DNA of 64,000 nucleotides. Source: Apium graveolens. Taxonomy: Eukaryota > Streptophyta > Magnoliopsida > Apiales > Apiaceae. This document shows positions 901 through 55,122 of this stretch, one piece after another; the stretch's first letter is position 1, and every line of letters begins with the position of its first letter. Where the stretch lies: NCBI RefSeq assembly GCF_009905375.1, contig NC_133647.1:48852506-48916505 (forward strand), written 5' to 3'. Made by a program: the position numbers and the translations under genes. Under the pieces are notes generated by a model. That model did not search any database and was not told where the DNA came from. It was given only the letters and a program-made list of their open reading frames with translations.

Positions 901-912
901 TTCTCCCCCCTT
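901..912 (-). other. TE1 polypurine tract
   Basis: In sense orientation the purine run AAGGGGGGAGAA abuts the first TG of the 3' LTR. This is the expected priming site for plus-strand DNA synthesis. Confidence 0.85.
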
Positions 913-937
913 AATTGGATTCTGTCCTCAGAATCTT

Positions 938-1430
938 TTATGAAAACAAATGAGGGTATTTCTCTAACATTTTACTTTCAAGTTCCCAGGTTGATTCTTC
1001 AACCATAGGATTTCTCCATAACACTCGCACTAAATATACAGACTTATTTCTCAACACTTTCTCTCACCGATCTAAAATTCTTACTGGCTGCTCTACAAAA
1101 GACAAATCAGGTTGGATATCTATCGGTTCATACTCTATTACATGCCTAGAATCAGGATTATATCGCTTAAGCATTGACACGTGAAACACATTGTGAATAT
1201 GTTGCATATGAGGCGGTAAAGCTAATTCGTATGCAAGCTTTCCTACTTTCTTCAAAATTTCAAATGGTCCGATATATCGTGGCTTCAATTTACCCTTATT
1301 GCTAAATCTAGTCAATCCTTTCCATGGCGATATTTTAAGTAATATGTGTTCTCCTTCCTGATAGTCCATATCCTTCCGTGCTTGGTCTGCGTATTTGCGT
1401 TGCCTGTTTTGCGCTGCATCGACGTTTCCG
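938..1430 (-). pseudogene. TE1 integrase C-terminal part and chromodomain, broken
   Basis: After a frameshift near 1430 this frame carries the integrase tail ([47 protein letters not shown]). It ends at a TGA (1064-1066) after QPVRILDR. The same frame then continues with a chromodomain (LVRVLWRNPMVEESTWELES) to a TAA at 938-940. In this family the chromodomain at the integrase end is thought to steer insertion to heterochromatin marks such as H3K9me. The TGA sits where related copies carry a sense codon, so it is a nonsense mutation between integrase tail and chromodomain. Confidence 0.9.
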
Positions 1431-4412: not shown

Positions 4413-5458
4413 TGCTGGTCCTTTACAATTCCTAGCGATATGCCCTCTCCTTCCGCATTAATAGCAAGTGATTTCTGTTGTTTTTCCTGTCGGACATTCG
4501 TTAGAGTAGTGCCCTTTCTGCTTGCATTTGAAACATGTCACCTCTGCTTTAATACATACGCCGGTATGCTTGCGTCCACAAGTTTTGCAATACGGCACTG
4601 AAACCTTAATAATTCCCTGCTGGTTGGAGACTTGGAAACGATTACCTGCTTTTTGTGTACCCTGTCCTATCCTTTTGAAATTCAGATTTGCCCGGGCTTG
4701 AAATCCCGGCTTTCTGTTGAAACGGTCTTGGAAACTTCCCTGTCCTCTGTCTCGTTGATATCTTTCACTTTCCCCTTCGATGATCAAAGCTTTCTGGACT
4801 ACAGTGGTATATGTTGCTAATTCAAAAACTGCAACTTGTCCGCGTATCCATGGTCGTAATCCTTCTTGAAACCTCTGCACTCGTTTCCCTTCAGTGTCCA
4901 CCTGTTCCGGAACAAACCTAGCCAACTCATTAAATTTGGCTTCATACTCTGTCACAGACATACTTCCCTGCTTCAGCTCTAAAAACTTTATCTACATCTG
5001 ATTTCTTATGTAGCGAGGAAAATGCTTCTCTAAAAATAATTCTTTGAACCTATCCCAAGCAATAACATCTTCACCTTCTAAAGCCTTTTTAGATTCCCAC
5101 CAATAATTTGCCTCTCCCTTCAACAAGTAACTAGCAAAATCAGTCTTCTGGTCCTCACCTACCTTTACTAGTACAAAAGCTTTCTCTATTTCCTTTAACC
5201 AGGTGGTAGCTTTAATAGGATCAGTAGACCCATCAAATTCTGGAGGTTTAACTGACTGAAACTGCTTAAAAGTAACAACAGGTTGAGGCTCAGGATGAGG
5301 TGGTTGTGGTAACATTTGTTGTTATATCTGCTGTTGCTGATGCTGCATCTGCTGCTGCATCATTACCATCTGAGGAACATTTGGTTCATGGTTTCATTAG
5401 TCTGGCCTTCAGAATTATTGTTAGAGGTCTCAGCCCTAGTCTTTCTTTTTGGTGCCAT
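4413..5458 (-). pseudogene. TE1 gag with zinc knuckles, broken
   Basis: The likely start is the ATG at 5458-5456 (MAPKRKTRAE), right after an acceptor-like TTATTATCAG. About 26 codons on, the reading changes frame, then continues through a Q-rich stretch with one TAA. The conserved Ty3 gag core follows (PPEFDGSTDPIKATTWLKEI, YWWESKKALEGEDV). A TAG replaces the Glu of the QMELKFLEL-type motif near 4990. One CCHC knuckle is intact (CFKCKQKGHYSNEC). A second reads CY-stop-CGRRGHIARNC, with TAA at 4458-4460 in place of a Lys codon. The lesions are one frameshift and three stops. Gag would form the particle and its knuckles bind the genomic RNA. Confidence 0.9.
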
Positions 5459-6011
5459 CTTTTTCTGATAATAAAACAGGTGATATTTATTTAACAGTTT
5501 AATAAACAATTGACAGTATGTAATGGAAACAATTTATCCTGTATTAATAACATGGTTTATTTAAAGAAAACAGTTACTAAATGTAAAAACTAAAAATGTA
5601 AACAGTTAAATAAAATGTTTATTCTTTTTCTTTTCTATTTTTTTTTAACAAGAATTATAGTTTAAAAGACTGTAAAGCAATAAAGTGAAAGTAAATGCTG
5701 TAAAACTTGAAAGACTGAAATTTAAATAAAAGATATTTGAAAAGTTCAGTTTATATATATATATATGTGACACCAGCTTCAGGTGTAAATGCTTGATACA
5801 AAAAGTCTCGGGCTACTGGTCATCACTACGGCTACAAGTCACACTATCGCTACAAGTTAAACTACTACTACAAGTTAAACTACTGATACACACATACACA
5901 CTACTCACTAGGTTATACTATGCTGCCTCTATATACACATGTACTCTGGAGTCATCGTCTCAAACCATCTCAGAACCCAGGCGGAATACGCCTAAGCTCC
6001 TCTCTAAGTGC
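5459..6011 (-). other. TE1 spacer between leader ORF and gag
   Basis: About 550 bp without a supported gene. It is AT-rich with a T run near 5640 and an AT microsatellite near 5755-5767. Just before the gag ATG the sense strand reads a pyrimidine-containing stretch ending TTATTATCAG at 5465, a possible splice acceptor. No coding evidence is seen. Confidence 0.6.
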
Positions 6012-6704
6012 CTAGACTAAAGTCTGTGCCAAGCGGAATATACGATAGAACTCTGCAAAAGAAGGAGGTCCATCATGGGTCAACTCATCAAGCTCCCAAG
6101 TAGCGCTCATCAATACTGACTGTAGTCGCTGCCTCATGTAGTAATCTGGCTGTAGGGCTGCTAACGGTCCTCTGTCCCTCTGATCAAACAGATGCATAAT
6201 CTCTCGACACTGTGCCCGCCAATACTCCATATCATCCCTCATAACTCTATACTCATGGTATGGTACCATATGCGGCTGAGCAATCTGACCTACTGACTCC
6301 TGGGAAGGAACCCTCGGAATACCTGCACCCGGCTGTGGTAAACCTAACTGTAGATCCACATCATGCTCTCCCATCCCCTCGACTGGAATCATCTGAACTA
6401 TGTCCGGCTCTGGGGCATGCACTGGTATAGGAGGTAACAATGGTAGTGGTGGTAATTCCTGCTCAATACCTGGTATAAACTGATACTCAATAGGTAAAGG
6501 AACTATCGGCTCGAAGAACTCAAAAGGATCAAACATCTCTATGGGGTCATGAACTATCCCCTGAACTGGTGGTACCGGCTCCTGTGGCAATGGTGGTAGA
6601 GGTGGTAGAGGAGGAAACATATACTCAGATACTGGAGGTATAACTGGTGCTGCTGGCCCAGTGATTGTCCTCTCGGAAGATGCAGAATAACCAGAAGATG
6701 CCAT
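6012..6704 (-). CDS. TE1 leader ORF: proline-rich extra protein between PBS and gag
   Basis: An intact sense-strand ORF of 230 codons that is not part of gag-pol; I do not recognise the family. The N-terminal half is rich in Pro and hydrophobic residues (PPLPPLPPLPQEPVPPV and similar runs). The C-terminal third looks helical and charged (YRVMRDDMEYWRAQC, RQRLQSVLMSATWELDELT). The ATG at 6704 directly follows TATTATCAG, an acceptor-like site. A longer reading starts five codons earlier but would begin inside the presumed intron. Elements 2 and 5 have a different-looking ORF in the same place. It is open while gag-pol has many lesions. It may have been expressed from a spliced subgenomic RNA whose first exon lies in the LTR (7178-7300). 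Confidence 0.7.
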   Translation of the reverse strand: MASSGYSASSERTITGPAAPVIPPVSEYMFPPLPPLPPLPQEPVPPVQGIVHDPIEMFDPFEFFEPIVPLPIEYQFIPGIEQELPPLPLLPPIPVHAPEPDIVQMIPVEGMGEHDVDLQLGLPQPGAGIPRVPSQESVGQIAQPHMVPYHEYRVMRDDMEYWRAQCREIMHLFDQRDRGPLAALQPDYYMRQRLQSVLMSATWELDELTHDGPPSFAEFYRIFRLAQTLV

Positions 6705-7177
6705 CTGATAATATACCAAAGAAAAGAAAAGGTCACTAAATAATTCTAAGATTTATACTTTCCTATTCTAATCTGACCTAAATCCTAACACTATTTTTCT
6801 TAATCTGACTATCCCTATCATATGTGATCTCTCTATCCTATCTTAATCCTAATGTTCTTGTTTTCAGGGACCAAACCTACAGCTCTGATGCCAAACTGTA
6901 ACGCCCTCCAGACCCGGGGTATAAGTCTGGGGTTACAAGCCAATCACCAAACCTGTACAAGCTTATTGATAATTAATAAAGAAATGAAACTAAACCCCTT
7001 AACAACTACCAGGATCTTTCTAGGTTGAAGTATGAAAACAAGAACCACTAACTACTTTTATTACAAACCAACATTTTTAAATCTCACAAACTTTCTTTAT
7101 TACAAACCATTGTCTAACTCATTTTAAACTAAGTTCAGTTTTTATTCAAACACACATACTATCTATTAACACTCCAC
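6705..7177 (-). promoter_or_regulatory. TE1 predicted leader intron spanning the LTR end and PBS
   Basis: The donor CAG|GTGGAG at 7178/7177 lies inside the short LTR ORF and the acceptor TTATCAG at 6705-6707 precedes the leader ORF. Joining them keeps phase 0. The 473-nt intron would contain the LTR end and the PBS, so the spliced RNA could not serve as a reverse-transcription template. This is inference from site consensus and phase only. Confidence 0.45.
6881..6895 (-). other. TE1 primer-binding site (initiator Met tRNA type)
   Basis: The sense strand reads TTTGGCATCAGAGCT one base after the 5' LTR. This matches the plant initiator-Met tRNA primer motif TGGTATCAGAGC with one substitution. 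Confidence 0.85.
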
Positions 7178-7300
7178 CTGCTCGGTCAACTCAAAGCTTT
7201 CTTCCTGGATAGAGATCAACACCTTTGGTATAAGAGGATCCCGAGGCTTGACCCGCTTCTTTACCATTCGTGTTCTGACGGGTTTCATATTCCTTCTTAA
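7178..7300 (-). CDS. TE1 LTR exon-like short basic ORF
   Basis: The sense strand shows GGCTCACCCC, a T-rich stretch and TTGTTTCAG, then 12 nt, then ATG at 7288. The ORF is 40 codons to the TAA at 7166-7168, and a donor-like CAG|GTGGAG cuts it after codon 37. The peptide begins MKPVRTRMVKKRVKPRDP, with 8 Lys/Arg in the first 16 residues. The same layout (CTCAC block, pyrimidines, CAG, ATG, basic start, AG|GT donor) recurs in the unrelated-looking LTRs of TE3/TE4 and TE2/TE5. Only one copy is visible here. Function is unknown; it may be the first coding exon of the leader ORF. Confidence 0.5.
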
Positions 7301-9280
7301 CTGAAACAATAAGGTGAATAACAACAAAAAGGGGTGAGCCAAAATTGCTCAACAAGTCTACCAAATATACACAATGTTAAAGCAATATAACTGAATCTTT
7401 ATCCCAGGTATATCTGCAAAGATATAACCTCATAAGAATCAAAAGAAGGCCATTGCTGGCAAATATAAACGAACTACACTAGATTCAAGTTCGCAGCTAT
7501 ACCCTGTTGATCAGCCAGGATACAGTGCAGATCTATATCTCACTATATAGATCTCGTCGGGCACCCAGGCACTACGGCCCATCTTAAGGATCCGGTTATG
7601 TTCCGGTACTTAGGATTAAGTAACCTTAATCCCCAAAAGTAATGTTATCCAGTCCTTAGAATAGCAACCAGAACAATCGGTATACTTTGATATATTCTAA
7701 TCACCAGAATATATTAATAATTGTGAGTAATAATTGGAATATGAATAATAAATTCAAATGAAAAGAATAATTCAAGAATCGAACTGAGATATGAATAAAG
7801 GAGTTTAAATAATGTAAATGTAATACGAATCTGAAGAGAATATCACTATTCTGGAAAATAGAATAGAGGAGAAACTTGTCTTTTGCGCGACTCACTGCAA
7901 TTAAATCACTTCCGTCTATCCCCTACTTGACCTGCCTTGCTGACTTAGCTTCTGTTAGCAAAATAGACTGATTAAGTCATCTTGTACTTTAATTTGCATC
8001 TTGAATTGACTTCATTTCATTCTTATTATCTACCCATGCGCCTATAACTGACTCTTATATTACATATAAGCAAGTAAGACTCGATTAACCACATAATACA
8101 CATAAGCACATAATCATTTTTATAGTCAAAATAATTTTTAGAATCAAAATCAACTCGCTGATTGCTCCGTTGATCACCTTCTGCTTCATTTCCCATTTTC
8201 CGTAATTTTTCGAACTCGTCTCGGCACGCATTTCAACTGATAATCAAGCAATCAATAAAATCAACTAATTTCGAGAAGAAATTAGGTCTTCATATTATTT
8301 TTAGTGAAAAGAATTCATTTTTCTGAGTCAACAGGCTTTCGTTTCGCTCAATTCGGACTAACGGTTGAATTATTATCAATTAAACACTGATAATTCAATA
8401 TAAATAATTATTGCTAATTTTTAAATCCCAAAATAATTTTTTTTGAATAATTATTTAACAAAACTCAAAGTCAAAAATATTTTTTTTATAATTTTTGGAG
8501 TTAAAATGAAGAAGTTATGATTTATCGAACATTATGTGACTAATTATCGAAATAATTAATCACTTTTTAAATATTTAATAAATAAATAACTAATAAATAA
8601 TTAATAGATAATTATTTACTAATTTAAAATAATTAATCCATAATTATTAGGATTAATCACAATTTATTACAAATATCTACAACTTATCGTTATTGATTTG
8701 ATTAGATCGATTATTTATAAATAAATAATCGATATCCTTTACTGATACGTTAATTACTGAATTATTCGAATCATAATCAAACTCAACAATCAATTACTCG
8801 TGTAAATACGAATCATTCATCTTTTTCGTATAATTATTGAATTATTACGATTATTATTACAATTTCTACGATTCAATCGATATTTAATTATACGATACGA
8901 ATAATTATTACGGTATTCTTCGAATAATTATCGCTCGAATAATAATTTTTAATTATCGAATCACTACTCGTATAGATACGAGTTACACGTAATATTCACT
9001 AATTATCGGATTATTAATCGTATTATTTAATCCTTATTTATTAATTAATTACCTAATTATTAATTAATTACCTAATTATTAATCAATTAGATAACTAATA
9101 AATAATTAGATAAATAATTAAGTAATTAAATAAATAATTAAATTCAAATTTCTAAATTAATAAAATAATTCAGACATTATTTACAAAATTATTTTAAATT
9201 TTTAAATCTAATTTTTATTTGATTTTTATAATTATTAAAAACTGATTTTAATATACTAAAATATAATTAATTAATAAAAT

Positions 9281-9780
9281 TTGCAGAAACAGAATTCTGG
9301 AAGTCAGGTTGGGAATTCTAGGATCAAACTCGGGTCAACAATCTCAGGAAAACGGGTTGGAACCCGGGTTTTCGGGTCGCTGAAGAACAGCCGCCGTGCT
9401 GCCCAGAAACCGGCGCCGGCGAGCTGTTTCCGGCGAGCCCAATTCGAACGTACAGGTCATTGGTTCTGCAAGATTTTTGTTCCGTTCAATTCCATGTGGC
9501 TGCAGCAACACAACCCTGCCGTTCTCCTTCAGCTCCGTCACCTCAGTCGCCTTCTCCGGCCAAAAACGTAACAACGTCGGCGAGCTCGATGTCCAAGTCC
9601 GGCGAACTCCAGTCGGGGTCAAAACACCACCATTCGAATCGATTTTTATATGAATTTCACTCAGAATCTCACCAGCAACACAACCAAACCAACAACACAA
9701 CCTGATAATCACTAGAACCAATTTTCCGATCAAACCAAGAAATTTTTCCGGCCAAACTCCGTTTTGCTTCGTTCGTACAC
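9281..9780 (-). other. GC- and CpG-rich island inside the TE1 LTR
   Basis: Roughly 500 bp is strikingly GC-rich (runs such as ccggcgccggcgagc) between AT-rich flanks. A sense-strand frame stays open for 129 codons at 9733-9344 (VLTPTGVRRTWTSSSPTLLR and so on), and other frames are also open, as expected of GC-rich sequence. I do not recognise a protein. It could be a captured piece of a host gene or promoter, or a CpG-island-like promoter of the element. Dense CpG suggests it has not long been exposed to methylation-driven decay. Confidence 0.5.
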
Positions 9781-10860
9781 AGAAAATTACAATCTATAGC
9801 TTAAAATAAAGCTTAGAGTATACACAATCAAACCCCTATAACCAAAATAACCTCAGAATCATGTAACTTCAAAAACGAATCAAAATAAAATGATAAAAAC
9901 TTGAAACTAAGAACTACTATCTAGAACATAACTCCGATCAATTAAATAGCACAAATCGATTGTAAATAAGTACAGGAAACTATACCAAGCATCAAAATCA
10001 ATCCAGAACCCCAGAATCAAAAACGCCTAAATCAGACATAAACCCTAAAAATCCGAATTGAAAATCAATGTAATAAAACACAAAATTGATGATAGAATTG
10101 GAAAGTAGGGATCAAGAGCTTTCGATTGAGTACTCACATGTTTGATTTGGAGATCAGAATCACTGTCAAATCTTTGCTTGAAATCAAGAACTCAAGAACC
10201 CTAATTTCTGAATTTGGGAATTAATTTGCAGAATTATGAATTAATTAATAATAATCAGGGTATTTATAGTATGAAAAATAATACTCCTAAATAAAATTAA
10301 GGGGCTAATTATACATTTAATAAAAATATTTGGCCCTAATTTTTATAATTTTTGGGTATTAAAATTTAATTTATAAATATTTTATATATACAATATATAT
10401 ACCAAAAATTCCCAAAAATTGTGAATAATTCAAAAATACAAAGAAATGGTATAAATAAAAGTCCTATAATTTTATAAAAATAAAAATGTGATTTTTGTGG
10501 GGTTTTTAACACCCAATGGGGCCCGGAAAAGTCATTTTTCGTAAAACGAGAAAATTTATAAAATAACTAGATGTTCAGAATATTGCGATTGTAAAAGCCG
10601 TTTGATGAAAAATAAGGCCCATTATTTTATTTGAAATACTGGCTTTAAAATCATTATTTGGGTTGCAAAGCGTTTCAAATGAAACCTTTGAATACGATAT
10701 AAAACATCTGAAAAATACCTTAAAAATATAGAAATGATACAGAATACACGTAGCATGTAACAATTAGGGTTTAACAGATAATCACACATAACTGACATAT
10801 TAATACACATATTTTATTATAAATATGATATAATACAACGTAAATTTGCCGGTCGTTACA

Positions 10861-31285: not shown

Positions 31286-31630
31286 CTAAGGCTCCACTCC
31301 ATCAGAACGGGGCTTGGTAGTTTTCTCCTCTCGAAGCATCTTCACAATGCTCTAGAGCTCATCCACCACCATCTGGATGATATACTGGCTGGTGCGGTCT
31401 TGGTGCGATGGCATCTCCTCAAGCTTAGTGTTGACGTACTGAACCAAAGTCTCAAGTCTCACAGTCATATGCTCCTTAGGCTTCCCTTCATAGTTTCGGC
31501 TGTCCGGGTACACGTTCTTCAGTCGGTCTATCAGTTGGTCGTACTTGCCCTGAAGCATGTCAACCTCACGCCTCAACTCAGCATACACGGACAAAACAAT
31601 AGTGTCGTCCGACCTAGAGGATGACGAGGA
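31286..31630 (-). pseudogene. TE2 leader ORF (extra protein between PBS and gag), 5'-truncated with one stop
   Basis: The frame reads SSSSSRSDDTIVLSVYAELR, then MLQGKYDQLIDRLKNVYPDS and so on. It is highly similar to the TE5 ORF at 50956-50600. A TAG (31352-31354) replaces a Gln that TE5 keeps; the ORF then reads SIVKMLREEKTTKPRSDGVE to TAG at 31286. Its composition suggests a helical, possibly coiled-coil protein. The ATG at its apparent start arises at the junction with TE6 and is not ancestral. The family is unknown to me. Conservation of the frame in two separate copies supports a real protein. Confidence 0.72.
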
Positions 31631-32022: not shown

Positions 32023-35000
32023 TGTCACACCCCCAACTTAACATATAAAATAAATAACTTTTACAATATTTAAAAGAAAGTAAACTTGACCGAATCCAAG
32101 ATCTTACAGTTTAGGGTTTGGAACAGCCCAAAACTACCATCTATTACAACTGATTTTTTTATCGAGTCCTCACACAAAACTATCTCTTATTCTACCTGAG
32201 CTCGGACATACGCATCGGCGTCACAGGTCTTACGTGCTGTCTGCTTGAATCTAACCATAGCTGCTAGCTGTAATATCAGGGTAAAGCAAGGAGTGAGCCA
32301 AATGCTCAACAAGTGCTAAATAATACGGTACAAAGCATAAATCGATATATATATAAAAGAATGACAATGCGAAGACGTAACCAATATTAACAAGAGATAA
32401 AACTTTGAGTGATGGCATCATTTGCTTGAATCAAAACATTTTCAAAATCATAACTTAAATAAAATCATTTTATGACGCTACGGATTACAGCCGGTGATCA
32501 GCCGCGAAGTAATCCCGAACCTCGCTGGGTTCGAAAACATTAATGGAATGCCTAGGCAACTTTTAAGCCTACAATATAAGCGTGGAAATGATTCGCATCT
32601 CAGTCCAGATTCACTATTCAAAGAAAACATTTATCCCCCTTTGGGACTGAAAATCCATATTTTAGTTATTTCAAAAACTGATGCCGATTTATGATAAAAT
32701 CTCTTAAGTAGTAAACATTTTTATCAAGGGATTATAGATCAACTTGAAATACTGGAAATATGTCAACAGACCTCAAGGCCATGATCCACAAGTCTTTACT
32801 ATATTAGGGTAATTGAAAGGTTTCCATATACAAGAACTTTGACAAGGAAATTTAGCAAGGCTATTGGATATTATGAAAGAGTAATGCCAAACTAGGCTTA
32901 AAACAATGGTTTTCGACAAGGTACAAGTACTAGAACATCAAGAAGATAATCTTCATAAATACTAGGGGTGTTAAGGTATGAAGAAATGATCTTTAGCTCA
33001 AGGTATATCATGATTGTCGAACTTTAGGAAAAGAAAAAGGATTATCAATCAATTAAGAACAACTTTAAAGAATATCTGGCTTTTAGGTATCAAGGTACAG
33101 TTTCTATTGGGGTTCAAGCATCAGGGTTAGATGTCAATATTTTAGGAATCAATAGCATGTTAATCAAGAGGATCAATCAAGTATTATATCAAATCTTTAT
33201 GGCATTCCAATTAGTTTGATATACTAGCGTGATACGACTTTTGATCTACTTGTAATATGTACTTGAGGGTTCTTGGCATTTCTATATAATATAAAGATAG
33301 ATTTAAGAATCGCTTGGTTCAAGTATATCAGGATAACTCAGGATAATCGCATCAATATATATGAACTAATTATCACACATTTGCAGTGTAAACGAAAAAC
33401 AGGTTGAATCACTTGCCTTGAAAAAGGCTAGTCTGGTCTGGCTGGTAGGAGCAACTGGAAGTTTTACTCGACCTTTATGGCAAGTTTACCCTCGTCTCGA
33501 GATCCTACACAATTAATAATAACCTCATTATAATATACTCTCACCAACTCAACCTATAAATACAATAGTACAATCACCTAATAAATACAATAGTACACAT
33601 AGACACATATACTCACATACCATATTTTAATACCAAATAATATCACACATATCATAATGCAACACTAGGCTTGGATGATCTCGATCCCCAACTAAGTCAC
33701 TTGATCGCTAAACTAGACAAATTCTCCAAATTGGGCCTTCTAACTCGATGTGCCTTTACTTAAATATCCAAAACCTATTGACCCTCACTTGGGCCTTTAA
33801 CTTTAATGGCTTTATACTATCTTGCAACCATAGTGGTCAACCCAGGTCTCACTCATAGGTGCTCTAAAACTATGTGGTAAGTGAAAGTGCTCACTGGAGT
33901 AAATTTCAGAATGTCATCTATGGTTTCTTGGGTGCATTAGACACTCTTAAACTACAAGTTTACCTCCAAAAATTCTACACTAGACTCTTCTGACCATAAG
34001 GCATCTCCCAAACTTGATGTGGCTCAAGGGTCTAGCTTGGGCCTCCTTGGGCCTAAGCACAAAGTCCATGGTTCCCCTGTTTTTCTGGGCCGAAAACGCC
34101 CTGACTTGAACTAACTTGTGACACATGGTTCTAACTCCAATCCTATGAACTATGGTTGGAAAAACTCCTCTGACACTCCCTCTAACTAAGGCACAACAGG
34201 GCCTAATGAGGGCCTACCCATGACATGGTCAAAACTTCCTATTTCTATGTTGCAACAAAACTGTCCCCTGCTGGACAGATTTTGTGATTCCACTCGTGCA
34301 CCTAACCAAACGACTTGTAAATCTCCAAAAAACACCTAAAACCTTTTATATACTCCTAATTCTAGCTTCTGGTGGCTTGGGCCTCAAAGTGCACAACAAT
34401 TACATGGTCAAAACTCACTCTAAACCTCAGGGTACCAAACTGATTTTCTGCGTGAAACTAAGACTCTCCTTTCTCCAAGGTTCTCACTTAACAAACCTAA
34501 CCACCAACAACCAAAATACCCAAACCATAACTTAAAATGGTGATCTACTGAAATAACTTCCTTACAATCAAAATAGGCTTAGTGGAGATCATCCTTACCT
34601 AGGGTGCAACATTGCAAAACAAAGGAAATCATATTACACAAATTACAAGTCATCAAGTTTTCCAGGATAACAACTTTAACCCTTTTGCTAAGTATAAACG
34701 AGATAACATCACATATTAAGGAGCAAAATTCTTAATTAATATCTTAACTTAACTAAAATTAAGGTTTACTAGCAAAATATCACTTCGAATGATCAACAAC
34801 TTCCAAAATTCAAGAGAAATCTACATGCATGCATGACTTCGAGTCTTTAAAACCAAAACAACATAATTTCCAAATAAATTTTCATTATAAATCAACATGC
34901 AAGCCTATCATGGATTATATCTAAATGACCACCTAGCATGCAAAGGTTTTTACCAAGATTTTACTAATATTTTTATGTTAGTATCACAAAAACACACAAA

Positions 35001-44700: not shown

Positions 44701-46306
44701 TGGAATGGATGTTGAGATTGAGTGCCACTAATCGGGTCGTGTTGACGTATAAGTTATTTTTGATAGAAAAACTAGGTCAATTATTTACCTATTGAATATT
44801 TATTCCTTCTTATCAATAGAGAGTCGTATTACTAGACAAGGAAGCTTGCGATGCAAGCATAGAATTCTAGTAACGATGATGTCTAGAATGAGATCCCAGA
44901 TTCGATTTTTGATATCGAGGGAGTTTCAAAGATGATTGTGTATAGGCTCGAGGAAGAGCATGGGTCCATAGAATGATGGACGGAATAGCAAAAATATTTA
45001 GGCATGTGAAATATGATGCTATAATACTTGATGTTGATATAAATACATATATGTTTTGTTCTCCTATGACAAACCTCTATAGTTCAGAGGTAGATTCCAA
45101 GCCAGATATTTTATGGCAATAATTGTTTTTTACGTATATACAATTCTCTTTAGTTCCTTCGTTTCTCTTCTTTTCATTTCATGTAAGCTGAGAAGAACAA
45201 CCCTTCCAGAAGGGGAGATATTGCCGAATGACTATCTATCTGTGTGATAGAAGCCTAGTAGGATACCACATGTTGTTTAATTGCTTGTCAAGTACTAAAG
45301 GCTGGCCACCTTCTGTACCAACTATGCAATAGAACAAGTGTTCATGATCATAGTGATCTCTCAACAAATTCCTTTACTTCTATATGATTGATCAAATTTT
45401 GGAAAATAGAAACAGCTGAAAAAGGAGTAGTAAAGTTATGGTGGTATTCGGAATGAAAACACATTCGTGATACTAAGGTTGACTTGGTTATTAAAAGGTT
45501 ATAGAACGCTAACGAGCAAAATTATAACCAGTATAATATTAGGAACGGAAGGTAGTAGCGATTACGAACTGGAAAATAATGGGTATTGAGAAGCAAAAGC
45601 TCTAATGCTAAAAGCTATAATGAGAGTTTTTGTAATAGACCTGAAAGAATTTGGAATGATCACTTAACGCAGATTGAGTTTTCTCACGATAATAGATCAT
45701 ATGTAATTATCGAGATGTCGCCTTATGAGATCCTTGAGGGAAGACAATGTCGATCTCCCTTATGTTAGGATGAAGTTGTAGAGCGCAAGATGCTCGGACC
45801 CGCACTAGTCCAAAGGACCAGGGATATAATAGATCTAATCAGAGGACGGATGGTATTAACCCAAGATGGACATAAGAGGTATGCTGATTTGACTCGAAAG
45901 GACAAAGAGTATGAATTAGGGGACCTAGTAATGTTATAGGTATCCCTTGGAAAGGATTGATGAGGTTCGGAAAGAAAGGAAAGCTAAGTCCACAAATTGT
46001 TGGACCCTTGGATATATTAAGACGTATTGGGAAGTTAACATATGAGCTAGCCCTACCCTCGAACATGTAGCAAGTCAAAACGTGTTTCACGTATCAATGT
46101 TAAGGAAGTGTAATTTGGATGCCAGATAAATAGGGGCATATGAGCACATAGACATGCAACCAGACGTAACCTATATGGAGCAACCAGGAAGGGTTATAGA
46201 TTGAAAAAGGAACAAGTGCTTAGGAGAAGGGTTATCAAACTATTCAGAGTTTGATGGAAGAACCACAATGTGGGAAAATTTACTTGAGAGTTAGAAAGTG
46301 CAATGC
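41774..46306 (+). pseudogene. TE4 decayed internal region (pol fragment, gag, pol)
   Basis: 41774-42066 is the end of the displaced RNase H/integrase fragment (VPNLQEHKDEILDES). 42237-42720 is gag (RQFMDLSRQNLDYYP, VEARAWLKEI). 42720-46306 is decayed pol. The integrase core is recognisable at 45586-45768 (NDHLTQIEFSHDNRSYV, SPYEILEGRQCRSPLC), then the integrase tail (KRYADLTRKDKEYELGDLVM) and a chromodomain-end remnant at 46210-46306 that resumes at 55128. Stops and shifts are frequent. The layout is the same as TE3, which supports descent from one chimeric parent. Confidence 0.78.
46302..46306. repeat. Target-site duplication of TE5, left copy (aatgc)
   Basis: Recurs at 55123-55127. Confidence 0.93.
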
Positions 46307-49300
46307 TGTCACACCCCTAACTTAAACAACAAAATAAATATAGCTATTACATCATTTTAATGAAGAATACACAACCAAGTCCAAGATCTTACAGTTTAGA
46401 GTTTGGAACAGCCCAACACTACCAACTATTACATCTGATTACAAATACCGAGTCCTCACACAACTATTATTACTTATTCTACCTGAGCTCGAACATAAGC
46501 ATCAGCATCACAGGTCTTACAGGCAGTCTGCTTGAATCTAACCATAGCTGCTAGCAGTAATATCAGGGTAAAGCAAGGAGTGAGCCGAATGCTCAACAAG
46601 TGCTAACAGTACGATACAAAACATAAATTGAGATATACTTTTAAGAATGACAATGGAAAGACATAGCTAATGATAACGAGAGATAAAACTATGTGAGATG
46701 GCATCATTTTGCTTGCATCAAAACAATTTTAAAATCATGTCTTAATCTAAATCATTTTATGACGTTACGGATTACAGCCGGTGATCAGCCGCGAAGTAAT
46801 CCCGAACCTCGCTGGGTTCTAAAACATTAATGGGAATCCCTAGGCAACTTTTAAGCCTAATATACGTGTGGAAAGGACTCGCGTCTCAGTCCAGATCCAC
46901 TATTCAAGAAAACATTTATCCCCCTTTGGGACTGAAAACCCACATTTTATTTATTTCAAAAGCTGATGCCGAATTGTAACAAAATCTCTTTAACAGTAAA
47001 TATTTTTATTAAGGGATTATAGATCAACTCGAAACATGGGAAATATGGTACTAAATCTCAGGGCCATGATTCACAAAACTTTAATCTATTAGGATAACCG
47101 AAAGGTTTTCATATGTCAGAACTTGGACAGGAAAATATGGTGAGACTAATGGATAATATGAAGGGGTAATGCCAAACTGGGCTCAAAGCAATGGTTTCTC
47201 GTCAAGATACAGGTGTTGGATCATTAAGAAGATAAGCTTCACGAATACTATGGGTGTTAAGGTATTGATCTCTAGCTCAGGATGTATATATATCAGAATT
47301 GTCAAGCTTTAGGATATGAAAGAGGGTATCAATCAATGAGGAATCATGTTGGTAAGTTTCTGACTATCAGACTTCAAGGTAAGGTTCTATAGGGGTTCAA
47401 GTATCAGGATGAGATATCAATACTCAGGAATCATCAACATGTTAATCAAGAGGATCAATCAAGTAATATAACAACTCTTTATTTTATCATGGCATTTAAC
47501 TATCATGAAAAGACTTTTGAACTACTTGCAATACATACTCGAGGGTTCATGGCATTTCTATATAATTCAAAGATAAGCGAGAGATACGCTTGATTTAAAC
47601 ATATCAAAATGACTCAGGATAATTGCATCGATATATATGAACTGTTTATAGTAAATACGAAGGTCAAGTTGAATCACTTGCCTTAAGATAGGCTGGTCTG
47701 GTCTGACTGGTAGGAGCAACTGGAGCTTCACTCGACCTTTATGGCAAGTTTTCCCTCTTCTTGAGATCCTACATAAATAATAATCCTCATTATAATATAT
47801 TCTCACTAACTTAACCTATTTACAACTTGAAATTAAACACGGATGGCACTTAGGCCTATACACACTTAATTTATATTCAATTTTAAATTACAATTGCACA
47901 CACATAGCCACATATTCACATATCATATATTAACACCAAATAACACCATATATACCATAATGCAACACTAGGCTTGGATGATCTTGACTCACCACTTAAG
48001 TCACTTGGTCGCTAAACTAGACAAAGTCTTCAAATTTTGGCTCCCTAACTCGATGTGCCTTTCCTAAATTATCCAAAACCTATTGACCCTCACTTGTGCA
48101 TTTTGCTCTACTGACCTTATACCATCTTGCAACTATGGTGGTCGACCTAATACTTACTCCTAAGTGTTCTAAAACTAGGTGATAAGTGAAAGTGCTCACT
48201 GGTGCAAATTTCAGAATGACAACTATAGTTTCTTGAGTGCATTAGGCACTCTTAAACTACGAGTTTTCCTTCAAAACTTTTACACAAGACTCTCCTGACC
48301 TAAGGGCATCTCACAAGTTTGATGTGGCTCAAGGGCCTGGCTTGGGCCTTCTTGGGCCTAAGCTAAAAGTCCAAGGTTCCCCTGTTTTTCTGTGCAGAAA
48401 ATGCCCTCACTTGAATTAACTTGTGACACATGGTTCTAACTCATATCCTATGAACTATGGTTGGAAAAACTTCTCTGACACTCCCTCTAACAAAGGCCCA
48501 ATTGGGCCTAATGAGGGCCTACCCATGACATGGTCAAATCTTCCTATTTCTAAGTTGCAACAAAACTGTCCATTGCTGGACAGATTTTGTTATTCTACTT
48601 GTGCACCTAACCAAATGACATGCAAACCTCCAACCAACTCCTAAAACCTTTTATATACTCCCAATACTAACTTCTGGTGGCTTGGGCCTCAAAGTGCACA
48701 CCAATGACATGGTCAAAACTCACTCTAAACCTCAGGGTAGTAAACTGATTTTCTGCAGAAACTATAACTCTCATTTCTCCAAGGTTTTGACTTGACAAAC
48801 TCAACTACCAACAACCCAATACTCAAACCAAGACTTAAACATGGTAATCTACTGAACTAACTCCCTTATTCTCAAAATAACCTTGGGTGAGATCATCCTT
48901 ACCTAAAGTACAATTATGGCAAAATAAGAGAATCTACACTTCACAAATCACAAATCTTCATGCTTTTGAAACAACAAGGTATGAATTTTTATAAAAGATA
49001 ATCACGGATTATTTCCATGCAACAAGAAGCATAAATCAATATTAACACATTATACCTACTGAAATTAAGGCTCACTAACAAAATCTTTCCAAATGATCAA
49101 AATCTTACAACATTCTAAGAGAAATCCTCATGCATGCATGCCTTCGGGTTTTTCAAACCAAAACAACACATTTTCTACATATATTCCATCTTAAAATTGA
49201 CATGCAAGCCTAGCATAAGGTATACCTAGATGATCACTTAGCATGCAAGGAGTTTTATCAAATTTCTACCACAAAATTCAAATCATTATCACATAAACAT

Positions 49301-50096
49301 GCAAAAATTGATCAAAATAACAAGAATGATTTCAAGGACCATTCATTCGGCTCCCATATGGTCATGGCCGAATGAAATGGATGGAAATGGCCATTAAATC
49401 ATCAAGAGTTTCCTTCTCATGACTTGGAACTTATCCATTCATTGTAGTCCTCTCAAAAACAACCTTAAATCCATAAGAATCAAGATTGTATTTTGAGTTT
49501 CACTAAAACCTTTACATGCAACCCTTAAACTTAAACCTTCTACTCAAAACTCTTTGAAATATGAATGATCATGGTATGGGAGATAACATTTACTTGTATA
49601 AAGAGTAGAAGCTTGGTGGAGAAATGAAGAAAAATGGGGAGGGGGGTTGGTTCTCGACTAAACCCGAGAGTGAGAGAGGGAGGGCCGAGAGTGAGGGAGA
49701 AGGGGAGGGATGAGAGAGTGAGGTGTGGGTGATGAGTGAAAATGATCATGTCTTTGCTTATTTTTATGGTATTTGATTTGACAAAATGTGAGTGGAAGGG
49801 AGAATTGACAAGTCTATCCCTCCACTTATACTTGGTGCATTTTGCATGCAAGGGTAAAGAAGAAAATTGGTTAGAGAACTAAGAGTTAGTGGGGTTGGAA
49901 TTGTCCTCTTTGTCCTTCAAAAGAATGAGAGGGTGGTTTGCATGCAAGGGATTTCTTGTAATTTGCTAAATATGACAACTAGAATTTATAATGATTTATT
50001 TTTATAAAATAAAATACAAGTTCAAAAATTATAAAATTTATACCATAAAATAACTTGGATTTTTAGAGACTTTATAAAATCATTTTCAAAATTTGT
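46307..50096 (-). repeat. TE5 3' LTR, U3-truncated
   Basis: Homologous to 51094-54887. The sense start of the LTR is missing; gag joins at 50096/50097. It contains an exon-like ORF copy at 46483-46554 and a GA-rich patch near 49680-49740 (CT-rich in sense, with CTCTCGGCC). No gene otherwise. Confidence 0.93.
46483..46554 (-). pseudogene. LTR exon-like ORF, TE5 3' LTR copy
   Basis: ATG at 46545 and donor CAG|GTAGAA at 46483/46482 are kept. The peptide starts MVRFKQTACKTCDADAYV (Arg to Cys, CGT to TGT). The acceptor is mutated from TTACAG to TTACTG. No internal stop. Confidence 0.45.
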
Positions 50097-50281
50097 CTAG
50101 GTGGTATTGGTGGTTCAGGTGGTTGGTGTGGCTCACGGTTATCTTGGTTTTTAATTCGTTGTTGAAGAGTTAGTTGTTGTTGAGCTATATCATTGGTTTG
50201 CTGTTGCAAAGTTTCCAGTAGTCGAAGAATATTTGGGTCTGTGGTGGAGGTGGTTGTTGGGTTCTTCTTTTTGGGAGGCAT
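50097..50281 (-). pseudogene. TE5 gag N-terminal fragment
   Basis: Starts MPPKKKNPTTTSTTDPNILR at 50281 and runs 62 codons to the deletion joint, then reads into LTR sequence. The ATG is preceded on the sense strand by CTCTTATTTCAG|GATC, a good acceptor-like site that is out of phase with the LTR exon donor, so gag would use its own ATG. Confidence 0.88.
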
Positions 50282-50599
50282 GATCCTGAAATAAGAGTTG
50301 TGTCAAAACAGATATGAATGATAAAATGATTCGAGGGTATCGCATGACATTCTGATTTACATATGGGGTCAAGTTTCCAAATTAAGTAGATATGGTGATG
50401 CATATAAAAATGTAAAATAACGGTTGAGGGCAAATGGAACAATAGAACATAATTATTGAAATTTTTAAAGGTCACAATATATAGGATTGGGACATAGTCT
50501 GTTTCTAGGAATAACAGGCTTATTTAAAAGATTAACGGAAACAACTGGGGATTCCATAGAGTCTAATAGTACAACAACATGAAAGGTAAATGGAAAGAA
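50282..50599 (-). other. TE5 spacer between leader ORF and gag
   Basis: About 320 bp, homologous to 30974-31285 in TE2. No gene seen except the acceptor-like site next to gag. Confidence 0.6.
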
Positions 50600-50956
50600 C
50601 TAAGGCTCCACTCCATCTGAACGGGGCTTGGTAGTCTTTTCCTCTCGAAGCGTCTTCACAATGCTCTGGAGCTCATCAGCCACCATCTGAATGACATACT
50701 GGCTGGTACGGTCCCGGTGTGCTGGCATCTCCTCAAGCTTAGTGTTAACGTACTGAAACAAGGTCTCAAGTCTCGCAGTCATCTGCTCCTTGGGCTTCCC
50801 TTCGTAGTTTCGGCTGTCCGGATACACGTTCTTCAGTCGGTCTATCAGTCGGTCGTACTTGCCCTGAAGCATGTCGAACTCGCGCCTCAACTCAGCATAC
50901 ACGGAGAAAGCAATAGTGTCGTCCGACCCAGAGGATAACGAGGAATGCGCCCTTTG
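50600..50956 (-). CDS. TE5 leader ORF, second exon of a possible spliced gene
   Basis: An open frame of 118 codons ending KPRSDGVEP at TAG 50600. The frame is open upstream to a TAA inside the presumed intron but has no ATG before AELRREFDM, well inside the part conserved with TE2. An acceptor-like GGTTGTCAG (50957-50959) precedes CAAAGGGCGC, and the phase there is 0. The LTR exon donor (51270/51269) is also phase 0, so splicing would supply the start codon. The composition suggests alpha-helices with many charged residues. Function is unknown. Its frame is conserved with the TE2 copy. Confidence 0.68.
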   Translation of the reverse strand, partial: QRAHSSLSSGSDDTIAFSVYAELRREFDMLQGKYDRLIDRLKNVYPDSRNYEGKPKEQMTARLETLFQYVNTKLEEMPAHRDRTSQYVIQMVADELQSIVKTLREEKTTKPRSDGVEP

Positions 50957-51269
50957 CTGACAACCAATAAGAGGAGTATTAATAATAATTTACTTAACCT
51001 ACTCTCTCGCATAATATCTATAACCTACACACAAATCCTATAACCTATTTGGGCTGTCCAGGGACTCTAAACCATAGCTCTGATACCAAAACCTGTCACA
51101 CCCCTAACTTAAACAGCAAAATAAATATAGCTATTACATCATTTTAATGAAGAATACACAACCAAGTCCAAGATCTTACAGTTTAGGATTTGGAACAGCC
51201 CAACACTACCAACTATTACATCTGATTACAAATACCGAGTCCTCACACAACTATTATTACTTATTCTAC
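50957..51269 (-). promoter_or_regulatory. TE5 predicted leader intron removing the PBS
   Basis: Donor CAG|GTAGAA at 51270/51269, acceptor TTGTCAG at 50957; length 313 nt. It covers the LTR end and the PBS. Joining is in phase and yields a frame with an ATG, which the leader ORF otherwise lacks. In this copy the exon has a TGA at codon 19 (CGA in the solo LTR). Confidence 0.5.
51076..51088 (-). other. TE5 primer-binding site
   Basis: Sense TGGTATCAGAGCT, five bases after the 5' LTR; perfect initiator-Met tRNA motif. Confidence 0.92.
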
Positions 51270-54200
51270 CTGAGCTCAAACATAAGCATCAGCATCACAG
51301 GTCTTACGGGCAGTCTTCTTGAATCTAACCATAGCTGCTAGCTGTAATATCAAGGTAAAGCAAGGAGTGAGCCGAATGCTCAACAAGTGCTAACAGTACG
51401 ACACAAAAGATAAATTGAGATATACTTTTAAGAATGACAATGGAAAGACATAACTAATGATAACGAGAGATAAAACTATGTGAGATGGCATCATTTTGCT
51501 TGCATCAAAACAATTTTAAAATCATGTCTTAATCAAAATCATTTTATGACGCTACGGATAACAGCCGGTAATCAGCCGCGAAGTAATCCCGAACCTCGCT
51601 GGGTTCTAAAACATTAACGGGAATCCCTAGGCAACTTTTAAGCCTAATATAAGTGTGGAAAGGACTCGCGTCTCAGTCCAGATCCACTATTCAAGAAAAC
51701 ATTTATCCCCCTTTGGGACTGAAAACCCACATTTTATTTATTTCAAAAGCTGATGCCAAATTGTAACAAAATCTCTTTTAACAGTAAATATTTTTATTAA
51801 GGGATTATAGATCAACTCGAAACAGGGGAAATATGGTACTATATCTCAGGGCCATGATTCACAAAACTTTACTCTATTAGGATAACCGAAAGGTTTTCAT
51901 ATGTCAGAACTTGGACAGGAAAATATGGTGAGACTAATGGATAATATGAAGGGGTAATGCCAAACTGGGCTCAAAGCAATGGTTTCTCGTCAAGGTACAT
52001 GTGTTGGATCATTAAGAAGATAAGCTTCACGAATAATATGGGTGTTAAGGTATTGATCTCTAGCTCAGGATGTATATATATATATCAGAATTGTCAAGCT
52101 TTAGGATAGGAAAGAGGGTATCAATCAATGAGGAATCATGTTGGTAAGTTTCTGACTATCAGAGTTCAAGGTAAGGTTCTATAGGGGTTCAAGTATCAGG
52201 ATGAGATATCAATACTCAGGAATCATCAGCATGTTAATTAAGAGGATCAATCAAGTAATATAACAACTCTTTATTTTATCATAGCATTTAACTATCATGA
52301 AAAGACTTTTGAACTACTTGCAATACATAGTCGAGGGTTCATGTCATTTCTATATAATTCAAAGATAAGCGAGTGATACGCTTGATTTAAACATATCAAA
52401 ATGACTCAGGATAATTGCATCGATATATATGAACTGTTTATAGTAAATACGAAGGTCAAGTTGAATCACTTGCCTTAAGATAGGCTGGTCTGGTCTGACT
52501 GGTAGGAGCAACTGGAGCTTCACTCGACCTTTATGGCAAGTTTTCCCTCGTCTCGAGATCCTACATAAATAATAATCCTCATTATAATATATTCTCACTA
52601 ACTTAACCTATTTACAACTTGAAATTAAACACGGATGGCACTTAGGCCTATACACACTTAATTTATATTCACTTTTAAATTACAATTGCACACACATAGC
52701 CACATATTCATATATCATATACTAACACCAAATAACACCATATATACCATAATGCAACACTAGGCTTGGATGATCTCGACTCACCACTTAAGTCACTTGG
52801 TCGCTAAACTAGACAAAGTCTTCAAATTTTGGCTCCCTAACTCGATGTGCCTTTCCTAAATTATCCAAAACCTATTGACCCTTACTTGTGCCTTTTACTC
52901 TACTGACCTTATACCATCTTGCAACTATGGTGGTCGACCTAATACTTACTCCTAAGTGTTCTAAAACTAGGTGATAAGTGAAAGTGGTCACTGGTGCAAA
53001 TTTTAGAATGACAACTATAGTTTCTTGAGTGCATTAGGCACTCTTAAACTATGAGTTTTCTTTCAAAACTTTTACACAAGACTCTCCTGACCTAAGGGCA
53101 TCTCACAAGCTTGATGTGGCTCAAGGGCCTGTCTTGGGCCTTCTTGGGCCAAAGCTAAAAGTCCAAGGTTCCCCTGTTTTTCTGGGCAGAAAATGCCCTG
53201 ACTTGAATTAACTTGTGACACATGGTTCTAACTCATATCCTATGAACTATGGTTGGAAACAATTCTCTGACACTCCCTCTAACTAAGGCCTAATTGGGCC
53301 TAATTAGGGCCTACCCATGACATGGTCAAATCTTCCTATTTCTAAGTTGCAACAAAACTGTCCCCTGCTGGACAGATTTTGTTATTCTACTTGTGCACCT
53401 AACCAAATGACATGCAAACTTCCAACCAACTCCTAAAACCTTTTATATATTCCCAATAATAACTTCTGGTGGCTTGGGCCTCAAAGTGCACACCAATGAC
53501 ATGGTCAAAACTCACTCTAAACCTCAAGGTACTAAACTGATTTTCTGCAGAAACTATAACTCTCATTTCTCCAAGTTTTTGACTTGACAAACTCAACTAC
53601 CAACAACCCAATACTCAAAACAAGACTTAAACATGGTAATCTAATGAACTAACTCCCTGATTCTCAAAATAACCTTGGGTGAGATCATCCTTACCTAAGG
53701 TACAATTATGGCAAAACAAGAGAATCTACACTTCACAAATCACAAATCTTCATGCTTTTGAAACAACAAGGTATGCATTTTTATAAAAGATAATCACGGA
53801 TTATTACCATGCAACAAGAAGCATAAATCAATATTAACACATTATACCTACTGAAATTAAGGCTCACTAATAAAATCTTTCCAAATGATCAAAATCTTAC
53901 AACATTCTAAGAGAAATCCTCATGCATGCATGCCTTCGGGTTTTTCAAACCAAAACAACACATTTTCTACATATATTCCATCTTAAAATTGACATGCAAG
54001 CCTAGAATAAGGTATACCTAGATGATCACTTAGCATGCAAGGAGTTTTATCAAATTTTTACCACAAAATTCAAGTCATTATCACATAAACATGCAAAAAT
54101 TGATCAAAATAACAAGAATGATTTCAAGGACCATTCATTCGGCTCCCATATGGTCATGGCCGAATGAAATGGATGTAAATGGCCATTAAATCATCAAGAG

Positions 54201-55122
54201 TTTCCTTCTCATGACTTGGCACTTATCCATTCATTGTAGTCCTCTAAAAAACAACCTTAAATCCATAAGAATCAAGATTGAATTTTGAGTTTCACTAAAA
54301 CCTTTATATGCAACCCTTAAACTTAAACTTTCTACTCAAAACTCTTTGAAATATGAAAGATCATGGTATGTGAGATAACATTCACTTGTATAAAGAGTAG
54401 AAGCTTGGTGGAGAAATGAAGAAAAATGGGGAGGGGGGTTGGTTCTCGGCTAAACCCGAGAGTGAGAGAGGGAGGGCCGAGAGTGAGGGAGAAGGGGATG
54501 GAGGAGATAGTGAGGTGTGGGTGATGAGTGAAAATGATCATGTCTTTGCTTGTTTTTATGGTATTTGATTTGACAAAGTGTGAGTGGAAGGGAGAATTGA
54601 CAAGTCAATCCCTCCACTTATACTTGGTGCATTTTGCATGCAAGGGTAAAGAAGGAAATTGGCTAGAGAAATAAGAGTTAGTGGGGTTGGAATTGTCCTC
54701 TTTGTCCTTGAAAAGAATGAGAGGGTGGTTTGCATGCAAGGGCTTTCTTGTAATTTGCTAAATATGACAACTAGAATTTATAATGATTTATTTTTATAAA
54801 ATAAAATACAAGTTCAAAAATTATAAAATTTATACCATAAAATAACTTGGATTTATAGAGACTTTATAAAATCATTTTCAAAATTTGTGAACAAAATACC
54901 TTTTAAAAGAAAAATTTTCCAAGGCTTAGAATATTCCTTATAAATCAAAAATAAATAAATTAAATAAACTCTTGCTTTGAAAAATCACGTACTACACAAA
55001 GCAAATTTATAATGCAGAAATTTTCACTCACACTAGCGTACAATCATTGAATATATTTTCATTTGACTTTAATATTATACCAAATCCACAAATAATATTA
55101 CACGAAAATACCGGTTGTAACA
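51094..55122 (-). repeat. TE5 5' LTR, 4029 bp, complete
   Basis: Sense TGTTACAACCGG to GGGTGTGACA. It is the only full-length LTR of this family in the window. The CT-rich region (in sense) with CTCTCGGCC lies at 54450-54520 and the exon-like ORF at 51270-51341. Nothing else coding is supported. Confidence 0.94.
51270..51341 (-). pseudogene. LTR exon-like ORF, TE5 5' LTR copy (stop at codon 19)
   Basis: Acceptor TTACAG, ATG at 51332 and donor CAG|GTAGAA at 51270/51269 are kept. The peptide is MVRFKKTARKTCDADAYV, then TGA in place of CGA. Confidence 0.5.

What the first reader, a model, noticed from the sequence alone, without database searches (positions are those of the whole stretch)
50600..51341. 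An exon hidden in the LTR appears to splice in phase to an extra leader ORF, removing the primer-binding site (TE5)
The TE5 leader ORF (50956-50600) has no usable ATG: its conserved part reads from an acceptor-like GTTGTCAG. In the LTR upstream there is an exon-like unit (51341-51270): TTACAG, ATG, basic ORF, CAG|GTAGAA. Donor and acceptor are both phase 0, so joining them gives one frame with a start codon. The 313-nt intron contains the PBS, so the product would be a dedicated mRNA, not a genome, as for retroviral subgenomic RNAs. Seen: sites, phase, frame conservation with TE2. Inferred: splicing and translation.
Basis: partly seen in the sequence, partly recalled or inferred. Interest (0 to 1): 0.88.

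Follow-up and report, generated by a model that had tools for sequence, protein, structure and literature searches.

The report
Retrotransposon exon mimicking histone H3 tail
In celery, a very common jumping gene hides in its terminal repeat a tiny exon that reads like the tip of histone H3 and appears to be spliced onto a second protein piece, which suggests that the element makes a histone-tail look-alike to interfere with the machinery that silences it.

Summary
The layout is real. LTR unit 51341-51270 and leader ORF 50956-50600 can be joined in phase 0 across a 313-nt intron holding the PBS. This copy is dead (TGA in the exon) and TE2 lacks the acceptor, but the family supports the idea. 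TE2 and TE5 differ at six fixed exon sites, all synonymous; pN/pS is 0.14 in frame, above 1.5 in the other frames. Of 39 other copies, 38 have a stop-free exon, 39 the donor, 38 the acceptor AG. In 56 of 57 readable loci no in-frame ATG precedes the acceptor. Eight public celery and hogweed gene models have this junction. Best reading: a spliced mRNA of a Tekay-like retrotransposon encodes an H3-tail mimic on a helical domain, probably engaging host H3K9 writers or readers. Splicing, translation and activity are not shown; no spliced genomic copy was found. My paper searches showed no such retrotransposon protein.

The parts
46307..55122 (-). TE5, a deletion derivative: 5'LTR 55122-51094, internal stretch 51093-50097, 3'LTR 50096-46307 lacking its first ~230 nt
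   Evidence: LTR pair 97.3% identical over 3.8 kb; deletion joins early gag (50097) to the 3'LTR
46302..46306 (.). target-site duplication AATGC (other copy 55123-55127)
   Evidence: both flanks read AATGC; an uninterrupted paralogue of the target lies at about 25153
51270..51341 (-). LTR exon: 9 nt, then ATG at 51332 and 21 codons, last base 51270; encodes the H3-tail-like peptide; TGA at codon 19 in this copy
50957..51269 (-). predicted intron, GTAGAA...GTTGTCAG, 313 nt
   Evidence: donor in 39 of 39 and acceptor AG in 38 of 39 other copies
51077..51088 (-). primer-binding site TGGTATCAGAGC (initiator tRNA-Met type, name recalled), inside the predicted intron
50600..50956 (-). leader exon: 118 codons plus TAG, predicted helical
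50097..50281 (-). start of gag (ATG at 50281), cut by the internal deletion; TTTCAG acceptor-like site just before the ATG
46483..46554 (-). same exon in the TE5 3'LTR (MVRFKQTACKTCDADAYVRAQ); its acceptor reads TTACTG
32196..32267 (-). same exon in the TE2 5'LTR (MVRFKQTARKTCDADAYVRAQ)
31286..31630 (-). TE2 leader body (one TAG inside); its PBS-acceptor stretch is replaced by unrelated DNA
7178..7300 (-). exon-like unit of the same layout in a second element (ATG 7288, MKPVRTRMVKKRVKPRD..., CAG|GTGGAG, phase 0), not H3-like
6012..6704 (-). leader ORF of that second element, starting at TATTATCAG|ATG, phase 0; PBS at 6893-6882 in between

Best explanation
A Tekay-like (chromovirus) LTR retrotransposon family of celery and its relatives makes, besides its genomic RNA, a spliced mRNA. 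A small exon near the 3' end of the LTR carries the start codon and about 21-27 codons. Splicing joins it in phase 0 to a leader ORF upstream of gag and removes the primer-binding site. The protein has a disordered N-terminus that copies the histone H3 tail from the first residue (V-R-x-K-Q-T-A-R-K-S/T for A-R-T-K-Q-T-A-R-K-S), a short variable linker, and an alpha-helical domain. The most likely mode of action is histone mimicry: after Met removal the tail is bound or methylated by host H3-tail enzymes or readers, most plausibly those of H3K9 (the SUVH4/KYP class and the readers of its mark), because the K9 context Q-T-A-R-K-S/T is kept while H3 positions 1 and 3 vary. The helical domain would carry this decoy or tether to element components. 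Shown here: sequence, phase, coding constraint between subfamilies, frame closure without splicing, H3-like peptide across subfamilies and two genera. Inferred: splicing, translation, interaction with H3 enzymes, and benefit to the element.
For: Exon coding: six fixed TE2/TE5 differences, all synonymous; pN/pS 0.14 in frame 0 against 2.67 and 1.59 in the other frames over 17 hand-picked exons, and 0.21 for linker codons 12-21, which the pattern does not select. Leader: no indel in 39 of 39 copies against 30 of 39 with an indel in the intron; TE2/TE5 15 synonymous of 30 changes, 25% expected, P 0.003. Splice logic: donor 39 of 39, acceptor AG 38 of 39; 56 of 57 readable loci have no in-frame ATG before the acceptor; L077, L079, L081 have a stop directly before it; leader conservation starts at the acceptor. 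Public gene models with the exact AQ|Q junction: P0002, P0007, P0010, P0012, P0015 (celery), P0016-P0018 (hogweed). H3 likeness: hogweed 9 of 10 residues 2-11 identical to H3, celery 7 of 10; the window's three LTR exons are the top three of 2,535 ATGs scored against H3; 8,384 against 0 control matches in the genome; 46 of 46 distinct exons from an anchor pattern that left the H3-like positions free keep both K4 and K9 equivalents. In P0016 the exon part is predicted disordered, the rest mainly helical.
Against: No RNA or peptide evidence. No precise spliced copy in the genome: the only two contiguous exon-leader places among the listed hits are ordinary deletions. Gene models can be ab initio, and P0011, P0013, P0014, P0022 use other junctions. 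Among the 39 near-identical copies the variants show no synonymous excess (leader: shared 3 syn and 3 nonsyn, singletons 12 syn, 23 nonsyn, 1 stop; exon: 1 syn of 5). In TE2/TE5 the stretch between leader and gag also has half of its changes in one phase (20 of 40), so the leader's phase count alone is weak. H3 position 1 is Val and position 3 often Phe, which would weaken H3K4-type readers. The tail is basic and could be only a nuclear signal. The second element has the layout but no H3 likeness, and its donor ranks only tenth of its GTs. No pull of codons toward celery H3 genes, so capture from H3 is unproved.
Confidence: 0.62

Rival explanations
1. Spliced leader protein, but the tail is only a basic nuclear-import or RNA-binding tag; the H3 likeness is inherited or fortuitous and has no H3-specific role.
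For: A sunflower Tekay 5'aORF protein has a predicted nuclear signal, and the passages seen name no H3 likeness (PMC11728184); the second element's exon is basic but not H3-like.
Against: A basic tag would not need K-Q-T-A-R-K-S/T at fixed distance from Met; in 46 distinct exons both lysines are kept 46 of 46 while synonymous sites change freely; the linker varies in length but the H3 part does not (loci partly chosen by a pattern that demands KQTARK).
Confidence: 0.22
2. The exon is a conserved short upstream ORF (a peptide that regulates translation of the unspliced RNA), and the leader ORF is read by internal initiation or not at all.
For: Without splicing the exon frame of most copies ends in GTAGAATAA, a natural short ORF; no RNA proves the join.
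Against: Leader conservation begins at the acceptor with no in-frame ATG before it in 56 of 57 readable loci; donor phase 0 kept across exon lengths 63-81 nt; eight gene models with the join.
Confidence: 0.1
3. The LTR exon is mainly a splice trap or 5'UTR exon joined to host exons or gag rather than to the leader.
For: Celery gene models P0002, P0007, P0010, P0012, P0013, P0015 join upstream sequence to the LTR acceptor; an acceptor-like site precedes the gag ATG.
Against: Host chimeras do not explain a frame constraint that ends in the phase of the leader; joining to the gag acceptor would be out of frame in TE5 (by inspection).
Confidence: 0.06

Closest known systems
5' additional ORFs (5'aORFs) of Tekay chromoviruses, e.g. 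sunflower Tekay group 2, RIRE3, Retrosat-2 (PMC11728184, passages)
   Same: extra ORF upstream of gag; helical segments plus disorder; predicted nuclear; type II chromodomain lineage
   Different: described as plain ORFs; a word search of the text found no 'splic', 'intron' or 'histone'; sunflower protein 402 aa with no sequence similarity to the grass ones
Spliced subgenomic RNAs of plant LTR retrotransposons: BARE1 (PMC3735527), EVADE and Ogre (PMC12786077, PMC6317226), passages
   Same: splicing makes an mRNA distinct from the genomic RNA
   Different: those introns lie at or downstream of the end of gag; here the first exon is in the LTR and the intron removes the PBS. PMC1142308 (2005, passages) stated that no intron upstream of gag had been reported in any LTR retroelement
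Viral histone-tail mimics: influenza NS1 ARSK, SARS-CoV-2 ORF8 ARKS (PMC10208167, passages)
   Same: short H3-tail motif in a parasite's protein
   Different: four-residue motifs in animal viruses (C-terminal in NS1); here up to 11 consecutive H3 residues (R2-G12, L077) at the predicted N-terminus, in a plant retrotransposon
Geminivirus TrAP, inhibitor of SUVH4/KYP (PMC4606454, abstract and passages)
   Same: a plant genome parasite targets the H3K9 methyltransferase step
   Different: TrAP binds the catalytic domain; the words 'histone mimic' and 'pseudosubstrate' do not occur in the text
Orchid Ty3/Gypsy elements with an acquired m6A demethylase ORF (as described in PMC12786077; PMC9289625 seen as listing only)
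   Same: an extra domain or ORF that would act on host regulation of the element
   Different: enzyme acting on RNA, not a histone mimic

Membership tests
Tekay chromovirus lineage | integrase C-terminus with group II chromodomain, motifs (K/R)-X-(L/T)-R-X-(k/r) and EEXTWEXE (PMC3350952 passages) | tested here: inconclusive
   second element: KVLRNK and EESTWELE fit, PF00385 E 8.6e-4 but 19.6 bits is below the cut-off of 25.1; the piece assigned to TE2 has decayed versions (KNLSNK, KESTWELE) and no Pfam hit for its part searched; TE5 has no pol
Tekay chromovirus lineage | gag and Ty3/gypsy-order pol of the family itself | tested here: inconclusive
   TE2 gag PF03732 and PF19259; the pol at 13051-15435 is assigned to TE2 across nested insertions by position only; TE5 internal region deleted
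Tekay 5'aORF | ORF upstream of gag, same strand, after the PBS | tested here: met
histone H3 tail mimic | H3 N-terminal sequence in register from the first residue | tested here: met
histone H3 tail mimic | bound or modified by H3-tail enzymes or readers | not testable with these tools
   needs peptide assays
core histone H3 | histone fold after the tail | tested here: not met
   no histone family for P0016 or the leader in Pfam; no fold match at E<=0.001, model confidence moderate
retrotransposon spliced subgenomic mRNA | donor, acceptor, phase and coding constraint consistent with splicing | tested here: met
   family level, not TE5 itself:
retrotransposon spliced subgenomic mRNA | junction in RNA | not testable with these tools
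   no transcript reads available; gene models only
retrotransposon spliced subgenomic mRNA | spliced copies reverse-transcribed into the genome (supporting, not required) | tested here: not met
   two contiguous places among the hits listed, both deletions; only 150 of 25,915 candidates were scored

The most novel reading that the evidence does not exclude
A plant retrotransposon encodes, on a PBS-less spliced mRNA, an element-borne histone H3 tail that is methylated at its K9 equivalent or blocks the enzyme, and so titrates or redirects the H3K9me2-DNA methylation loop, or serves as the ligand of the element's own unexplained group II chromodomain. Thousands of LTR copies would be a reservoir of H3-tail exons with acceptor and donor that could also be spliced onto host genes.
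Probability: 0.4. Interest if true: 0.97.

Novelty: new variant of a known kind. Interest (0 to 1): 0.9.

Why it matters
Chromoviruses are present in high copy number in plant genomes (PMC3605345, abstract in listing). How they get past H3K9 and DNA-methylation silencing, what their 5'aORFs do and what group II chromodomains bind are open questions. An element-encoded H3 tail links all three and makes each testable with a short peptide. It would extend histone mimicry from viruses to plant retrotransposons, and it shows a way to separate mRNA from genomic RNA by splicing out the PBS.

Tried and rejected
Rejected: 'no usable ATG because of a TE5 frameshift': I suspected this from P0001, but 56 of 57 readable loci lack an in-frame ATG. 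'Gene models prove splicing': P0014 and P0022 read the PBS stretch as an exon, so models alone prove little. Spliced retrocopies: L109 and L110 looked right by coordinates but are deletions. Capture from a host H3 gene: no excess of shared codons (L077 6 of 9, P 0.17), undecided. PDB sequence search with the 21-residue peptide: no hit; too short to mean anything. Fold search: no match at E<=0.001. Viral-contig scans: none. Copies of the second element: not answered. A paper on the hogweed genome annotation: not found, so I do not know whether RNA data stand behind the gene models.

Biases: the 39 copies are the best-scoring 40 (window included) of 2,966 candidates. The pattern demands KQTARK, so codons 1-11 and most loci are selected for it. 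One search used 17 exons (2 of the window, 15 fetched) that I picked by hand for diversity. The 57 readable loci are those of 89 scanned (L009-L097) in which a motif for the leader start was found; 39 of the 89 are near-identical copies.
Full report
Where it is. The window lies in a 3.33-Gb assembly (G000 C1:48852506-48916505). I infer celery, Apium graveolens: the closest named leader relatives are celery records, and contig C3 (298,219,968 bases) has the length of the contig of celery record P0022. TE5 is on the minus strand, 55122-46307, with TSD AATGC and an uninterrupted paralogue of its target at about 25153. Its LTR pair is 97.3% identical over 3.8 kb. It is a deletion derivative: early gag is fused to the 3'LTR at 50097/50096.

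The observation. The TE5 exon itself carries K for Q at codon 6 and a TGA at codon 19; the 3'LTR copy has Cys for Arg at codon 9; TE2 is clean but lacks the acceptor stretch.

Is the exon coding? TE2 against both TE5 LTRs: 301 fixed differences in an alignment of 1,960 columns (113 with gaps); six fall in the 63-nt exon, all in codon position 3 and all synonymous (24% expected, P about 2e-4); in the flanks the three phases are even. The three differences private to one TE5 LTR change the amino acid or make the stop, as expected of decay after insertion. Over 17 hand-picked exons pN/pS is 0.14 in the claimed frame and 2.67 and 1.59 in the others; for the linker codons 12-21, outside the pattern, it is 0.21. 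Exons of different subfamilies are 63, 66, 69, 75 and 81 nt long; of 24 loci examined 19 keep CAG|GTAG, each in phase 0 (my count from that table). In a pattern anchored only on ATGGT and the donor (9,352 matches, 117 in the reversed control), 99 of 100 listed places keep a multiple of three (my count).

Is the leader joined to it? In 39 other copies (the listed best 40 of 2,966 candidates less the window itself) the exon is stop-free in 38, the peptide identical to TE2's in 35 (my count), the donor present in 39, the acceptor AG in 38, the leader 118 codons in 37; indels against the window occur in 0 of 39 exons and leaders, 30 of 39 introns and 34 of 39 post-leader stretches (indels shared by descent count many times). 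Variants among these near-identical copies show no synonymous excess (leader: shared 3 synonymous and 3 not; singletons 12 synonymous, 23 not, 1 stop; exon: 1 of 5 synonymous), so they carry no sign of constraint; the constraint shows between subfamilies. For the leader, TE2/TE5 have 15 synonymous of 30 changes (25% expected, P 0.003) and no gap; but the stretch after the leader also has 20 of 40 changes in one phase, with 16 gap columns, so the phase count alone is weak. Of 89 loci scanned, 57 have a readable leader start, and only one of these has an ATG between the last stop and the acceptor; in L077, L079 and L081 a stop abuts the acceptor codon. Among 25 public relatives, 17 extend upstream of the leader acceptor: 8 have exactly the exon-leader junction, 4 read through unspliced (P0001, P0008, P0009, P0019) and 5 start or join otherwise (P0011, P0013, P0014, P0020, P0022) (my count). 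P0016 stands for 13 member sequences. No transcript data were available. The search for a precise spliced copy in the genome scored 150 of 25,915 candidates; two contiguous places came up and proved to be deletions.

What the exon says. Histone H3 begins MARTKQTARKSTGG (celery genes). The exon peptides begin MVRFKQTARKTCDA (TE2 and most of the copies fetched), MVRTKQTARKSTGR (L077), MVRMKQTARKSTGG (L081), MVRFKQTARKSTGN (L087), MVRFKQTARKSSGG (L089), and in hogweed MVRTKQTARKSSNG (P0016). The likeness is in register from the first residue. Random expectation for 9 of 10 matches at residues 2-11 is 7e-11, for 7 of 10 it is 2e-7, uncorrected for my choosing H3 after seeing the peptide. The hogweed proteins and the window exons were found through the leader or the LTR, not through H3. 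In 46 distinct exons from the anchor pattern, the equivalents of H3 K4 and K9 and the Thr after K9 are kept in 46 of 46, Q5 and T6 in 43, R8 in 41, A7 in 32 (10 Thr, 3 Ser, 1 Val), while synonymous changes abound. A pattern demanding VRxKQTARK finds 8,384 places, none in the reversed control. Codons are not nearer to celery H3 genes than TE codon usage predicts (four exons tested), so capture and convergence both remain open; either way the peptide, not the DNA, is what persists.

The rest of the protein. AlphaFold2 for hogweed P0016 gives residues 1-34 below pLDDT 50 and four helices from residue 40 on (mean pLDDT 69.9, pTM 0.45); no PDB fold match at E 0.001, and only Pfam matches below their cut-offs.

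How it probably works. The spliced RNA would have lost the PBS and could not be primed there, so it would be an mRNA only. Removal of Met before Val (recalled rule) would expose V-R-x-K-Q-T-A-R-K-S/T. Positions 1 and 3, important to H3K4 readers (recalled), differ from H3; the K9 context is kept. I therefore favour an effect on H3K9 methylation: substrate decoy or inhibitor of SUVH-type enzymes, or a methylated ligand that draws readers. A precedent for attack on this step is geminivirus TrAP against KYP (PMC4606454, abstract and passages). A second possibility is a ligand for the element's own group II chromodomain, a class whose partner is unknown (PMC3350952, PMC12786077, passages). The lineage placement rests on chromodomain motifs in the second element and on gag and pol relatives, not on TE5, which has no pol.

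Known or new. Tekay 5'aORFs are known (PMC11728184, passages; the 2011 survey it cites was not read). Splicing of plant LTR elements is known for BARE1, EVADE and Ogre, at or downstream of the end of gag (PMC3735527, PMC12786077, PMC6317226, passages). H3 motifs are known in animal viruses (PMC10208167, passages). I saw no report of a retrotransposon-encoded H3 tail or of a PBS-removing intron in the listings of searches, which cover open PMC papers only and show at most 20 papers each. PMC10611923 was seen in passages and PMC7264820 in its first part of three.

The second element. Window 10860..1 (minus strand) has the same plan: TTTCAG|exon (ATG 7288, 37 codons)|GTGGAG, PBS at 6893, TATTATCAG|ATG leader, both phase 0. 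Its peptide is basic but not H3-like, its leader shows no local similarity to P0016 and has its own ATG at the acceptor, and its donor ranks tenth in my rough scoring. One copy only was seen. It suggests, no more, that the splice plan is older than, or independent of, the H3 likeness.

Noticed in passing
window 51536-51661 (minus strand): LTR block almost free of TE2/TE5 differences (0 to 3 per 63-nt window inside it, about 10 expected); possibly promoter or start-site DNA
   Followed up: no
window about 51385-51342 and 7356-7301: TTGTTGAGCA(n)GGCTCAC motif followed by a pyrimidine-rich stretch before the LTR acceptor in both elements; looks like branch point and 3' splice site, implying a further intron inside the LTR
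   Followed up: partly
window 50301-50286: ACAACTCTTATTTCAG four bases before the gag ATG: a possible acceptor for a gag mRNA
   Followed up: no
P0002, P0007, P0010, P0012, P0013, P0015: celery gene models in which upstream sequence is joined to the LTR acceptor, so H3-like exons may become part of host or chimeric genes
   Followed up: partly
window 32021-31631: about 391 nt of DNA unrelated to TE5 replace the PBS-acceptor stretch of TE2
   Followed up: no
L109, L110: two genomic deletions that bring exon and leader close together, mimicking splicing
   Followed up: yes
P0001, P0008, P0009, L095: copies whose unspliced leader frame is open from an upstream ATG; one of 57 readable loci
   Followed up: partly
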